A DNA stretch of 64,000 nt, from assembly GCA_905221605.1 (NCBI GenBank), contig CAJNDS010002834.1:157501-221500 (forward strand), written 5' to 3'. This DNA comes from Symbiodinium natans. Lineage: Eukaryota; Sar; Dinophyceae; Suessiales; Symbiodiniaceae. Position 1 is the first letter of the stretch. Each line of letters begins with the position of its first letter. Both the position numbers and the translations under genes were made by a program. This document shows, piece after piece, positions 8,270 through 63,541 of this stretch. The notes under the pieces were generated by a model. That model searched no databases, was not told where the DNA came from, and saw only the letters and a program-made list of their open reading frames with translations.

Positions 8270-10510
8270 CCCTCGGAGCTTTGCCAAAGCTTGCAGTGAC
8301 GAAGATGAGGCACGGAGAAGCAGTGAAGATGTTGCTGTCGACACCCTGAAGCTTCGGGGGTACTTGGGAGCAGTTTTTCGTTAGGGGTGTAGGGGTTTAG
8401 GGGTTTAGGGTTTAGGGTTTAGGGTTCAGGGTTCAGGGTTTAGGGTTTTTTGGCATCATGACAGTTCCCAAGAAACAGCCAAAATTGTGATTTTTGCTGG
8501 GGTTCTGGCCCAGTGGTGCCCCTTTTCCCTTTTTGGGGTTCAAGGTTTTCCCTTGTAAAGTAACCAACCCAAAGAAGGGTGCCCTCATTGTAGCATGGTT
8601 GCTGGGCTACCAAGAAGTTCAGTACAGGAACCTCCTGGTGTCTTTGCCCAGTGGACAATGTGAAGTTGTGCCAGTACCGCTGGGCAGCACCGTTGGTGAT
8701 TTGAAAATCGCAGCGCAACGGTCCTTTGGGAGATCTTTCTTGAGTTTTGCCGCCCCAGACGGACGCCTTTTGGATCCAACAGAACCTCTTCCACTTGCAC
8801 TGCCAAATGGTGACAGCATTACTGCAGTTGCACAGAGGGCAAGCATAGCCGCCACGGGCAGAGCCTTTGCTTTGTGGTGTGTGGGTGGTCACAGGGTCGT
8901 CACATGGGGCGATCCGGCTTCCGGTGGTGATAGCTCCCTTGTCCAAGATCGGCTCAGAAACGTGCAACAGATATATGCCGCACAAGCTGCTTTTGCAGCG
9001 GTTCTGGCAGATGGAACTGCCGTGACATGGGGTAGTCAATTCTCAGGTGGTGACAGTTCTGACGTCCAAGAACAGCTTCGGAACATTCAGAAGATACATG
9101 CCACACGGAGGGCTTTTGCTGCAATTTTGGCAGATGGCACGGTTGTGGCGTGGGGCAGACGGGATGCGGGTGGTGACAGTGCTGGGGCCCAAGATCGGCT
9201 TAGGAATGTTCAGCAGGTACATGCCACAGACAGTGCTTTTGCAGCAATTTTGGCAGATGGATCTGTGGTGACATGGGGTGACGAAGGCAGCGGTGGTGAC
9301 AGCTCTGAAATCCAAGATCAGCTGAAGAACGTTCTGGAAATACATGCCACCGAGACTGCTTTTGCAGCCGTGTTGGCAGATGGAACCGCCTTGACATGGG
9401 GTAATCCCCTCTGGGGTGGTGACAGTTCTGATGTCCAATTTCAGCTTAGGAACGTTCAAAAGATCCATGCTACAGGTAGTGCCTTCGCTGCGATCTTGGC
9501 AGGTGGAATGGTCCTGACATGGGGCAATCCGATGAGAGGTGGTGACAGTTCTGAGGTCCAGCATCGGCTCAGGAACCTAGGCCCTTTAGGGACATCTTGG
9601 ATTTTCCCTTATTGGGTTTAAGAGGATCATCTTACCCTAAACCCTAAACCCTAAACCCTAAACCCTAAACCCTAAACCCTAAACCCTAAACCCTAAACCC
9701 TAAACCCACTTTTCAGAGGGCTTTAAAGGCCATCCCAGGAACGTTCAGAAGATTTCGGCCACAAGGGCCGCTTTTGCTGCGCTCTTGGCAGATGAAACCG
9801 TCGTGACATGGGGGGATTCAGCCGCTGGTGGCTTGGTAGCCCAGTGGTACCCTTTTCCCTTTTGTTTTTTTGGTTTAGGGTTTAGGGTTTAGGGTTTAGG
9901 GAAACCCTTTTGCCCTTTTTTCGGGTTCTAGGTTCCCGTATAAAGTAAGCAACCAAACAAGGGGGTGCCCTTATTATCATATGGTTGCTGGGCTACTAAG
10001 GTGGTGATAGCACTGCGGTCCTGGCTCGGCTCAGGAACGTTCGGCAGATACTAGGTAGGCCCGTGGGGATATTTTATATTTTTACCTTCGTGGGTTTAAG
10101 AGAAGCATATTCAGGAACCAGAGGGTTTTAAGGCCCGTCCTAGGATATATGCCACACAAGCTGCTTTTGCTGCAGTTTTGGCAGATGGAACAGTGGTGAC
10201 CTGGGGGCACACGGATGCTGGTGGCGACAGCACCAGGGTTCAAGATCGGCTGATAAACGTACAGGAGATACACGCCGCAGAGCGCGATTTCGCAGCGTTC
10301 TTGCCAGATGGAATTGTCTTGACATGGGGCCATACAGATTCAAGTGGTCAGTTTGCAGCAGTGGAGGATCGGCTCAAGATGGTTCAGCAAATCAGTTCCA
10401 CTGAGCGTGCTTTTGCGGCGATCTTGGCAGATGGACAGGTGCTGACATGGGGTGATCCGCGGACCGGTGGTAACAGCAAGAGAGCCCAACATCAGTTCTC
10501 ATACGTGTAG
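8270..10510 (+). CDS. Ubiquitin-like plus RCC1-like repeat protein, multi-exon
   Basis: Exons by eye: 8270-8359, 8465-8501, 8615-9572, 9739-9827, 10001-10046, 10144-10510 (TAG). The start codon is not seen. A ubiquitin-like domain (SLPSGQCEVV..GDLKIAAQ..APDGRLLDP) is followed by ten repeats of about 41 residues, each with AFAA.LADGT..TWG, GGDSS, Q..LRN and IHAT. Such proteins resemble HERC/RCC1-type propellers, but these repeats are shorter than classical RCC1 blades and no HECT domain is visible, so ligase activity should not be assumed. Introns 9573-9738 and 10047-10143 are GA-AG, 9828-10000 is GT-AG; each removal restores the repeat frame exactly. The join across 8502-8614 is GT-AG, but the upstream phase is unsettled: 8359 to 8465 fits in one frame and 8501 to 8615 in another. 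The final TAG replaces a glutamine expected from the repeat, and the frame stays open to 10675. Confidence 0.8.
8501..8614 (+). mobile_element. Introner, family B, in the RCC1-like gene
   Basis: Runs from GGTTCTGGCCCAGTGGTGCC to GGTTGCTGGGCTACCAAG. Its left terminal repeat is diverged and no clean target duplication is seen. It reads through without a stop in one frame, so an open-frame caller fuses it to the gene. Confidence 0.7.
9577..9738 (+). mobile_element. Introner, family A, with 73-base CCCTAAA insert
   Basis: Target duplication GAAC at 9573-9576 and 9739-9742. Element ends are CTAGGCCC and CCATCCCAG. Splicing from GA of the left duplication to AG of the right end restores codons for RLRNVQK. 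Bases 9635-9707 are a pure CCCTAAA block replacing about ten bases present in other copies. Confidence 0.85.
9832..10000 (+). mobile_element. Introner, family B, with TTTAGGG insert
   Basis: Target duplication GTGG at 9828-9831 and 10001-10004. Terminal repeats are CTTGGTAGCCCAG and CTGGGCTACTAAG. GT-AG removal (9828-10000) restores codons for AAGGDS. A 30-base TTTAGGG block (9872-9901) lies inside, flanked by two similar copies of ACCCTTTT(G)CCCTTTT. Confidence 0.85.
10051..10143 (+). mobile_element. Introner, family A, no telomere insert
   Basis: Target duplication GATA at 10047-10050 and 10144-10147. Ends are CTAGGTAGGCCC and GCCCGTCCTAG. GA-AG removal restores codons for VRQIYATQ. This clean copy shows what the family looks like without an array. 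Confidence 0.85.
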
Positions 10511-10675
10511 CAGCTCGGCATGGCTGTGGTTCCATCACGGGTCTCGAAAACACGGCGGCTGGCGCTGTCGTCTGCGGCGATGCTCCGCGATGTCTCTCGA
10601 GAGTTGTTGTCGGCACAGCCATGGTTGTCACGATTTCAGGGTTCTAATGACATGCACATTGACATGTTGCCTTAG
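10511..10675 (+). pseudogene. In-frame continuation past the TAG of the RCC1-like gene
   Basis: After TAG at 10508-10510 the same frame reads 54 more codons (QLGMAVVPSRVSKTRRLALS..) to TAG at 10673. The eleventh repeat would need a glutamine (CAG) where TAG stands. Either the gene has a recent nonsense change, or the protein really ends here and this is 3' untranslated sequence. Confidence 0.45.
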
Positions 10676-10913
10676 GGGCGATCAAGTAAGCAGCACCAAA
10701 ACGCACCATGGTGGTTGTATGTGGGTCTACGTAAATTTAGATTGAAGACCTGCTGTTTGCCAACAATCAGGTCTAGTATGTGGGTTACCCATAACATCCC
10801 TCGAATGTGACTTGCGCCTGAGGAATTAGCAAACGACAGGTTCAGCCCCCGGGCCGTTTTCCACCAAACTGGGCATCAAAACGGGTCCAGTTACTGTAGA
10901 CACCCCCTGCAAC

Positions 10914-11025
10914 TTGGGATGTGTCCCCCATATACTAACAGGCCATAGTAGGGATTATACTCGGGGGTACTAGAATCCCTAACTATTAAGGACTGCTAGC
11001 ATAATAATAAGGGAGAACATCCCAA
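10914..11025. mobile_element. Palindromic element, family D
   Basis: Ends TTGGGATGTGTCCCCC and GGGAGAACATCCCAA are inverted. The middle has TAGGGATTATA and TAGAATCCCTA. Relatives occur at 35021-35124, 37725-37809, 41482-41560, 43851-43966, 57407-57512 and 57521-57624. Confidence 0.75.
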
Positions 11026-11032
11026 CCTGTAA

Positions 11033-11141
11033 CCCAAAGGATCCATGTACCTCTATAGTATATACTTGGGCCCTAAAGCTACTATATAGGAACCCCTTTA
11101 AGGCCTAAGTATATACTATATAGGTACATGGATCCTTAGCG
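11033..11141. mobile_element. Palindromic element, family E
   Basis: Ends CCCAAAGGATCCATGTACC and GGTACATGGATCCTTAG are inverted. Flanked by TAA on both sides (3-base duplication). Near-identical copies are at 18193-18301 and, inverted, 21496-21604; a decayed one is at 50399-50477. Confidence 0.85.
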
Positions 11142-11404
11142 TAACCTCCACCACCTCAGCGCACTTTTTTGCCCATCGGCCGAGCGTCAGGACGAGGGGC
11201 AGGTAAAGAAGTGGCCGTCCCTGTTCTCAGGCCATGTTTGGGGGTGACTGGGGGAGGGGTGAGAATTATAGGGAACCCTAAACCCTAAACCCTAAACCCT
11301 AAACCCTAAACCCTAAACCCTAAACCCTGTAAGCCCGAAGCCCCTGAGGCCGAGACCCGAAACCCCAAAACCCCATTGCAAGCCCGAAAAACCTGTGCCT
11401 CACT

Positions 11405-62837: not shown

Positions 62838-62978
62838 GTGTCAATGTGTACTATAAGCCCTATAAGCTCCGGACCCGACTTCCCATGCCCTAAGCCCGAA
62901 ACCTTAAGCCCCGAACTTAAACCCCTAAACCCTAAACTCTAAACCCTAAACCCCTGATTAAGACTGCACAAGCCCAAG

Positions 62979-63060
62979 CCGGCGATCGCCGACAGGCGCC
63001 CCTGGAAAAATCGACCTCGCAAGCTGGGCCGACTTTTGACGCGCGCCGTGCTACACATTC
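62979..63060 (+). CDS. Possible exon, overlaps the next in another frame
   Basis: After CACAAGCCCAAG reads AIADRRPWKNRPRKLGRLLT then RAVLHIRF to TGA at 63066. The frame of the following exon is also open back through these bases (TFDFDNVFYGDKS), so the boundary is not resolved. Confidence 0.35.
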
Positions 63061-63090
63061 GATTTTGACAACGTCTTCTACGGAGACAAG

Positions 63091-63342
63091 TCGGTGACAC
63101 CTGACGGTGTCGTTGAGTCAGCAGACCCGGTGCCCGCATGGCTTTCAAGGAATCGTCGTGAGGCACTCGCTGCAGGGGTCTCCGCCGAGTGGGGTAAGTC
63201 CGCGGCGATGGTTCGCGAGTATGAAGCGGCGTGGCCGACGGCAGATCCTCTTGGCCCACAGAGCGGATACCCAGAGTGGAGGGCACTAACCTCTGCGCCC
63301 GACACGTACATGGAGACCGCGGCGCCGAAGGGTGAACGGAAG
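63091..63342 (+). CDS. Largest exon of the right end, unknown protein
   Basis: Reads 84 codons without a stop: TPDGVVESADPVPAWLSRNR, later REYEAAWPTADPLGPQSGYP and WRALTSAPDTYMETAAPKGE, ending CGGAAG|GTCCTCG, phase 0. An internal GTAAGT at 63194 is a strong donor by sequence, but the frame beyond it is clearly coding. The open frame runs on to TAG at 63472. Open frames on the minus strand (62939-63311) are taken as shadows because they lack splice signals. The protein is not recognised. Confidence 0.6.
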
Positions 63343-63514
63343 GTCCTCGTTACCCCAAGCCAAGCCCTTGAGTCGCGCCTTAGACTTTGTTGCGCAAGGT
63401 ATAGGGCTTCGCGTCTAGGCGTAGGGTGTGCAGCAATGGGTGTAGGGCTAGCTGAGTTGCTGTCTAGATTTTAGGGTTCTTTGGGGTGCGCTGTTGATTG
63501 AAACGTTGCTGCAG

Positions 63515-63541
63515 CCTGCACTATGTGAAGAGACTCTTGCC
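63515..63541 (+). CDS. Short exon-like island
   Basis: Strong acceptor (GTTGATTGAAACGTTGCTGCAG). Reads PALCEETLA and may end at a GC donor (GCC|GCAAGC). Confidence 0.35.

What the first reader, a model, noticed from the sequence alone, without database searches (positions are those of the whole stretch)
8270..63541. Introns built largely of telomere-type repeats, whose units supply donor and acceptor sites
Seen: at least a dozen exons end exactly where an array starts, with the predicted donor being GTTTAGGG (after 14188, 15991, 23332, 33139, 36112, 37978, 39324, 47976, 49608, 50202, 59281, 60720). Several acceptors are the last unit of an array (TTTAG|G before 26106, 44442, 54662). TTTAGGG repeated on the sense strand contains both G|GTTTAG and TTTAG|G, so an array is a ready-made intron. 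Known: interstitial telomere repeats occur in many genomes, and dinoflagellate introns can be founded by introners. Inference: arrays captured in transcribed DNA may be tolerated, or even maintained, because they can splice themselves out.
Basis: partly seen in the sequence, partly recalled or inferred. Interest (0 to 1): 0.9.

Follow-up and report, generated by a model that had tools for sequence, protein, structure and literature searches.

The report
Telomere-repeat arrays flank dinoflagellate exons
In this dinoflagellate, introns of some genes are packed with chromosome-end-type repeats that sit just outside the small exons in a preferred orientation, but the splice sites appear to be ordinary ones a short way outside the repeats rather than the repeats themselves.

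Summary
The window lies in a 759-Mb dinoflagellate genome (205 exact spliced-leader matches, control 0) full of TTTAGGG arrays (3.58 million exact 14-mers, control 537). Arrays do crowd exon edges, but the claim that their units supply donor and acceptor is not supported. An array-rich dynein gene, read by spliced alignment to an intronless paralog, has 23 introns: 0 of 23 donors are GTTTAG and 0 of 23 acceptors TTTAG|G. Donors are GC, GT or GA and acceptors AG|G, outside the arrays. Sister genes, some with equally small exons, have array-free introns with the same signals, so arrays are not needed and more likely enlarge introns than found them. New rule: around 49 homology-placed exons the nearest array within 300 nt is CCCTAAA upstream (36 of 47) and TTTAGGG downstream (37 of 45). 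Genome-wide, C-to-T spacing of 140-170 bp outnumbers T-to-C 906,305 to 390,674. The cause of this polarity is open: a splicing filter (slightly favoured) or DNA-level growth away from exons.

The parts
14019..14231 (+). C array (14019-14079), gap of 97 bp (14090-14186), then T array from 14190: the outward C-gap-T arrangement.
13444..13701 (+). Open exon-like stretch with a database relative (48 of 60 aligned residues identical). Beyond this stretch the two proteins differ (by eye); the first exact T unit follows at 13717. Candidate GC donors start at 13700 (percentile 17) and 13706 (percentile 38).
   Evidence: donor choice is inference
59192..59281 (+). Likely exon (reads GYSAQLQDVEEFLKSEHTIKAEETLSIHRK) between two T arrays; AAG|GTTTAGGG at its end is the only one of the 12 listed donors with a mid-range score (percentile 49). 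An alternative GAG|GA 24 nt upstream scores higher. No convincing homolog found.
39224..39325 (+). Exon-like C-gap-T segment (98 bp) before a perfect 14-unit T array; the edge donor scores at percentile 9, a GT site 8 nt upstream at percentile 85
60650..60720 (+). C-gap-T segment with CAG|GAGCTGGCC as possible acceptor; the edge donor scores at percentile 0
25804..26103 (+). (TTTTAGGG)n 8-mer array ending at the TTTAG|G proposed as an acceptor before 26106; acceptor percentile 8, the AG|G three bases on at percentile 20
44397..44550 (+). T array followed by the open frame SNVMTELKKKTSVIDPMACVEQAGEAIYSSFAPYRA and a stop; TTTAG|G acceptor at percentile 16, with no other AG|G in about 60 nt downstream
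54601..54785 (+). T array and proposed acceptor at 54662: percentile 1; a much better AG|G (score 9.76) follows base 54721
9634..9707 (-). Example of a perfect C-strand array (10 units); the window has 128 C and 116 T arrays of at least 2 units, with C-to-T gaps of 75-150 bp in 41 of 68 against 19 of 67 T-to-C gaps

Best explanation
The genes are intron-rich in the dinoflagellate manner: G[C/T/A] donors, AG|G acceptors, and in the array-rich genes and some array-poor ones exons of about 50 nt. In many regions the introns have been enlarged by local amplification of telomere-type repeats. The arrays are passengers removed with the intron; the splice sites are ordinary ones outside the arrays. 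Near the acceptor a T-strand array brings an AG every 7 nt, while a C-strand array (CCCTAAA) contains neither AG nor GT, so selection for correct splicing leaves C arrays before acceptors and T arrays after donors. Shown (by homology, in dynein genes): array-independent splice sites, exon avoidance, closeness to exons, polarity, array-free sister introns. Inferred: that arrays came after introns, and that selection at the RNA level sets the polarity (the donor side is the weaker half of this argument).
For: Spliced alignment of the C96 gene: 23 introns of 287-1978 nt, all 23 acceptors AG|G, donors GC 12, GT 7, GA 4, none made of an array unit. The CDS is intact and constrained. Array-poor sister genes, eight loci: 85 alignment introns, 70 kept; median 130.5 nt against 676 nt in C96; GC 35, GT 19, GA 16; similar donor profile. 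C96 donors score on a profile built only from array-free introns much as real donors do (median 3.75 against 4.23). Polarity around 49 exons: C upstream 36 of 47 (p=3.5e-4), T downstream 37 of 45 (p=1.5e-5). In C96, 50-100 nt after the donor T covers 0.38 and C 0.15; 50-100 nt before the acceptor C covers 0.46 and T 0.09. T arrays are held further from acceptors than C arrays (median 59 against 25 nt, p=0.0018). Genome-wide C-N140-170-T 906,305 against T-N140-170-C 390,674, reversed controls 983 and 1160; at N10-40 it is 49,388 against 79,263.
Against: Array-free introns show no G- or C-run polarity (GGG 71 donor half, 66 acceptor half; 70 introns), so no general G-triplet rule explains T arrays at donors; a first hint from one gene, C1899 (26 against 4; 23 against 12 with the window), did not hold over all. 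Four of the eight array-poor loci (C1831, C1790, C2282, C1720) also have exons of hundreds of nt, so small exons are not general there. Only one intron position (TTK|D) was seen to be shared exactly between array-rich C96 and array-free C1899, read by eye, so 'introns first' is not proven. The array-poor genes were aligned to more distant paralogs, so single junctions there are less certain. There is no RNA evidence. The genes tested are all dyneins, the array-rich ones at four loci.
Confidence: 0.5

Rival explanations
1. DNA-level outward growth. Repeats are added or expanded away from exon-side DNA (telomerase-like healing of intronic breaks, or insertion of elements bounded by telomere repeats), so that each exon looks like a tiny chromosome, CCCTAAA-exon-TTTAGGG.
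For: The arrangement is its own reverse complement and points outward at both ends; genome-wide 2.3:1 excess; 70 array-free introns lack any polarity, so it comes with the arrays; some directly abutting T-C joints (TC gaps of 0, 5, 11, 14 and 20 bp in C96) resemble fused healed ends.
Against: Orientations at the two ends of one intron are not coupled (T/C 10, T/T 6, C/C 6, C/T 1) and inverted repeats within introns are no commoner than after swapping ends (8 of 23 within 60 nt, control mean 9.6). Array-masked sequence is mostly unique (6-14% repeated in the four dynein loci and the window, 8% and 20% in the two flanks), so no common element body was seen among nine sequences. In C96, gaps without an exon are more often T-to-C than C-to-T (19 against 10).
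Confidence: 0.3
2. One reading: arrays are self-sufficient introns whose units act as donor and acceptor.
For: A few window sites fit (59281 AAG|GTTTAGGG; 44442 TTTAG|G); the unit does contain GT and AG.
Confidence: 0.06
3. Hairpin bridging: the 5' TTTAGGG and 3' CCCTAAA arrays of one intron pair in the RNA and bring the splice sites together, like stem-forming introner introns.
For: Sequences are perfectly complementary; T/C is the commonest single class (10 of 23).
Against: No coupling between ends beyond independence; no excess of paired inverted repeats over end-swapped controls; array-free introns exist without them (by homology).
Confidence: 0.07
4. Assembly or base-calling artefact that inserts telomere repeats.
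For: Array content is extreme (3.58 million 14-mers).
Against: Arrays include locally homogeneous variant units, avoid exons and leave a constrained CDS intact, and stretches on other contigs of the same assembly have none or almost none (3-4 kb loci; 18 kb of C2492 and 10 kb of C1899).
Confidence: 0.03

Closest known systems
Dinoflagellate introners / introner elements (PMC7789003 and PMC10666404, passages found by word search; Roy et al. 2023 only as summarised in PMC11453091)
   Same: Dinoflagellate, extreme intron richness, GC/GA donors, repeats of opposite orientation near intron ends. [quoted passage not shown]
   Different: Here the repeat is the telomere heptamer in arrays of up to tens of units; ends are not paired within introns beyond chance; no shared element body seen; any target-site duplication signal is weak.
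Interstitial telomeric sequences (review PMC9498494, passages found by word search)
   Same: Telomere-type repeats away from chromosome ends, exact and variant units.
   Different: Here inside introns with preferred orientation toward exons, and the same spacing bias genome-wide; that review's text has no occurrence of 'intron'.
Intronic microsatellite/minisatellite expansion (general knowledge)
   Same: Local amplification of variant units (8-mers, 10-mers) suggests slippage or conversion.
   Different: Same family in all 23 introns of the C96 gene stretch, with polarity by intron end.
Ciliate gene-sized chromosomes (recalled; only as analogy)
   Same: C-rich repeat, coding piece, G-rich repeat.
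   Different: Here the pieces are exons inside long contigs joined by splicing, not separate molecules.

Membership tests
Spliceosomal introns of the dinoflagellate type | G[T/C/A] donors and AG|G acceptors | tested here: met
   C96: 23 of 23 AG|G; GC 12, GT 7, GA 4. The aligner favoured GT, GC and GA donors equally and AG acceptors; the G after AG was not imposed. For the 70 array-free introns the filter required AG|G, so they are no test of it.
Introner elements (inverted-repeat definition) | Inverted repeat of 8-20 nt within 30 nt of both intron ends | tested here: not met
   3 of 23 C96 introns, end-swapped control mean 2.5; array-free 1 of 67, control 0.7
Introner elements | Short direct repeat (target-site duplication) at the exon-intron boundary | tested here: inconclusive
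   Second base of intron and of downstream exon agree in 45% against 31% expected over 93 introns (p=0.002); positions 3 and 4 give p=0.05 and 0.08, and a local comparison of 35-base starts in C96 p=0.10
Introner elements | Shared sequence body among copies in different genes | tested here: not met
   Array-masked sequence 6-14% repeated in the window and the four dynein loci, 8% and 20% in the two flanks; nine sequences compared only
Interstitial telomeric sequences | Telomere-type repeats at internal positions | tested here: met
   That TTTAGGG is the telomere repeat of dinoflagellates is from passages of PMC11453091 and PMC11508785; not tested for this organism
   0 of 23 donors, 0 of 23 acceptors in the C96 gene; not testable by homology at the window's own 15 sites

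The most novel reading that the evidence does not exclude
Telomere-type repeats are laid down outward from exon-side DNA across a whole dinoflagellate genome, by telomerase-like addition at intronic breaks followed by rejoining. This process lengthens introns and may found some of them, so that exons come to stand as CCCTAAA-exon-TTTAGGG islands: a link between break healing and intron growth.
Probability: 0.2. Interest if true: 0.9.

Novelty: new variant of a known kind. Interest (0 to 1): 0.62.

Why it matters
If the polarity holds with RNA data, this genome gives very many natural examples of how a repeat is placed relative to splice sites, and makes it testable whether the rule comes from splicing (an AG-free zone before acceptors) or from a DNA process that grows telomere repeats away from exons. 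It also warns that gene finders that take arrays, or GT alone, as exon borders will misplace exons in such genomes.

Tried and rejected
Long target-site duplication at intron starts: some intron starts look like the next exon's start, but the permutation test gave p=0.10; with 93 introns only the second base stands out. G-triplet splicing grammar: suggested by one array-free gene, not seen in 70 array-free introns. Paired inverted arms or hairpins: no excess over end-swapped introns. A fixed exon-plus-spacer spacing as an exon-only feature: C-to-T gaps without exons in C96 have similar lengths (10 gaps, 65-213 bp), so gap length alone does not mark exons. Branch-point motif (YTNAY) before acceptors: small numbers, highest at 44-56 nt, no convincing peak. 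Homologs for window pieces: of 10 given to Pfam only 8491-9618 scored over a cut-off (RCC1 repeats); three given to PDB sequences gave nothing convincing; three searched in the own genome found only the window itself; one given to the protein collection found one relative (13444-13701). Literature: the searches gave no paper that, by title, abstract start or the passages I looked at, describes telomere repeats filling dinoflagellate introns (subscription papers are mostly not held; Roy et al. 2023 was not read; no paper was read whole).

Rows dropped: of the hits I left out, by eye, four in C1812 (low complexity or off-model) and one in C204, and trimmed the ends of some others; one further C204 exon came. 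Of 16 alignment exons in C1971 I used 8, judged by eye. The first and last C96 exons were left out. Of 85 array-free introns 15 were dropped for length under 45 nt, an end other than AG|G or another donor.
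Full report
WHAT THE WINDOW IS. The window is bases 157501-221500 of contig C2522 in an unnamed 759-Mb assembly. The 21-base dinoflagellate spliced-leader word (recalled) occurs 205 times exactly, its reversed control 0 times, so I take it for a dinoflagellate. The 14-mer TTTAGGGTTTAGGG occurs 1,788,098 times forward and 1,787,600 times reverse, against 257 and 280 for the reversed word. 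That is 4.7 per kb genome-wide and 10.6 per kb in the window, so the window is about twice as array-rich as the average. At 7 new bases per hit the genome total is at least about 25 Mb (3%); scaled by the window's coverage it could be near 11% (inference). Other fetched stretches of 3-18 kb hold no arrays or almost none.

CHECKING THE OBSERVATION. The quoted strings exist. Arrays of at least two exact units number 116 T (TTTAGGG on +) and 128 C (CCCTAAA on +) and cover 25% of the window. The window pieces that I tested have almost no detectable relatives, so I took the test to genes that do. A dynein domain search of the own genome (PF12774; 37 matches) found uninterrupted copies and copies split into small exons, some of these in array-rich stretches (C96, C1812, C1971, C204) and some in array-poor ones.

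A GENE READ EXON BY EXON. The C96 copy aligns to the uninterrupted C158 copy (83% amino-acid identity over 388 codons). [quoted passage not shown] Internal exons are 16-79 nt, introns 287-1978 nt. All 23 acceptors are AG|G. Donors are GC 12, GT 7, GA 4. None starts GTTTAG and none ends TTTAG. Differences at codon positions 1, 2, 3 are 0.17, 0.10, 0.53 with no stop, as under purifying selection.

WHERE THE ARRAYS LIE. In C96 the first array starts within 60 nt of the donor in 19 of 23 introns (random placement 9.5; 0 of 4000 simulations as high) and the last ends within 60 nt of the acceptor in 15 of 23 (random 9.5; P=0.012). None is within 4 nt, which random placement would also often give. 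Over 49 homology-placed exons (C96 22, C1812 17, C1971 8, C204 2; ends exact in C96, approximate elsewhere; exons outside C96 chosen by eye) no array overlaps an exon. Within 300 nt the nearest upstream array is C in 36 of 47 (p=3.5e-4) and the nearest downstream array is T in 37 of 45 (p=1.5e-5). Of 43 exons with both, 30 are C-exon-T, 6 T-T, 4 T-C, 3 C-C. The p-values treat exons as independent although they come from four loci. In C96 alone, against random placement of its own arrays, the two excesses are 16 of 23 each, P=0.028 and P=0.016.

GENOME-WIDE. The arrangement is its own reverse complement, so it can be counted without annotation. CCCTAAA-N140-170-TTTAGGG occurs 906,305 times and TTTAGGG-N140-170-CCCTAAA 390,674 times, reversed controls 983 and 1160. 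At N10-40 the order is the other way: 49,388 against 79,263. Within loaded sequence (210 kb, partly chosen around exons) the ratio goes from 0.47 at 0-30 nt to 2.2 at 150-180 and 1.0 at 300-330. These count unit matches, not arrays, so long arrays weigh more. Gap lengths in the window agree: 41 of 68 C-to-T gaps are 75-150 bp against 19 of 67 T-to-C gaps (p=2.6e-4). Not every C-to-T gap is an exon: in C96 ten such gaps without an exon have similar lengths. So the genome-wide excess fits the exon rule but does not prove that exons fill those gaps.

ARE ARRAYS NEEDED, AND DO THEY MAKE SPLICE SITES? Eight array-poor dynein loci gave 85 introns, 70 of them kept: median 130.5 nt, donors GC 35, GT 19, GA 16. 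In four of these loci (C1899, C1852, C1757, C1768) exons are mostly under 110 nt; the other four also have exons of hundreds of nt. These loci were aligned to more distant paralogs, so single junctions are less sure than in C96. The donor profile of array-free and array-rich introns is alike (G, then C or T more often than A, C most frequent at +5, G at +8), and C96 donors score on a profile built from array-free introns alone much as real donors do. Each has a higher-scoring site within 70 nt upstream; a best-of-many choice favours that, but these sites also beat the best sites of random stretches (p=0.006). One junction, 59281, remains credible as an array-edge donor.

WHY THE POLARITY? A C array has neither AG nor GT and is harmless before an acceptor; a T array has an AG in every unit. 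T arrays are kept further from acceptors than C arrays (median 59 against 25 nt, p=0.0018), with a weaker difference at donors (C 52.5 against T 35 nt, p=0.03). This fits a splicing filter at the acceptor. At the donor the filter is less clear: array-free introns show no G-run or C-run polarity (GGG 71 against 66), so a general G-triplet enhancer rule is not supported here, although one gene had suggested it. The two ends of an intron are not coupled and inverted repeats are not in excess within introns, which speaks against hairpin bridging and against intact inverted-repeat elements. Array-masked sequence is mostly unique among the sequences loaded. A DNA-level process that grows repeats outward from exon-side DNA remains possible.

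STANDING AGAINST THE LITERATURE. Dinoflagellate introners with inverted repeats at intron ends, and interstitial telomeric repeats, are both known (PMC7789003, PMC10666404, PMC9498494; passages only). I found no description of telomere-type arrays filling dinoflagellate introns with orientation set by the exon (searches; open-licence papers only).

VERDICT. The eye-catching pattern is real. It is stronger than reported on one point (two-sided and oriented, with a matching spacing bias genome-wide) and wrong on another: the repeat units are not the splice sites in any of the 23 array-rich introns that could be read exactly.

Noticed in passing
window 11031-11150, 18192-18303, 21495-21606: About 110-bp hairpin-like element repeated in the window and other loaded contigs (depth 10-11), probably a small non-autonomous transposon.
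   Followed up: no
window 6281-6540, 11415-11580, 17189-17262, 25804-26103, 29546-29738: Locally homogeneous arrays of variant units (TCAGGGTTTA 10-mer, GGGTTTAGGG 10-mer, CCCCAAA, TTTTAGGG, GGGCTTA), suggesting local amplification rather than fresh telomerase copying.
   Followed up: no
window 8491-10507: RCC1-repeat region (for 8491-9618) interrupted by stretches, one of which contains a T array (9872-9901), read by eye.
   Followed up: partly
L009, L047-L048 (C2492), L012 (C158): Uninterrupted dynein stretches, with an open frame of 3242 codons in C2492, in the same genome as intron-saturated paralogs; perhaps copies made from spliced mRNA.
   Followed up: no
array-free introns and C96 introns: An extended donor profile beyond GN (C most frequent at +5, G at +8, A rare at +5) shared by array-rich and array-free introns.
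   Followed up: partly
L045 (C2522:147501-157500): 64% masked as telomere-like or single-base runs but only 9% in exact arrays; perhaps a diverged array domain upstream of the window.
   Followed up: no
window 3923-3947, 37334-37349, 40471-40506 and others: Long single-base runs (T; C; T then G) in stretches that look non-coding.
   Followed up: no
window 58305-58500: Tandem low-complexity coding-like repeat GRGEEEERKRR.
   Followed up: no
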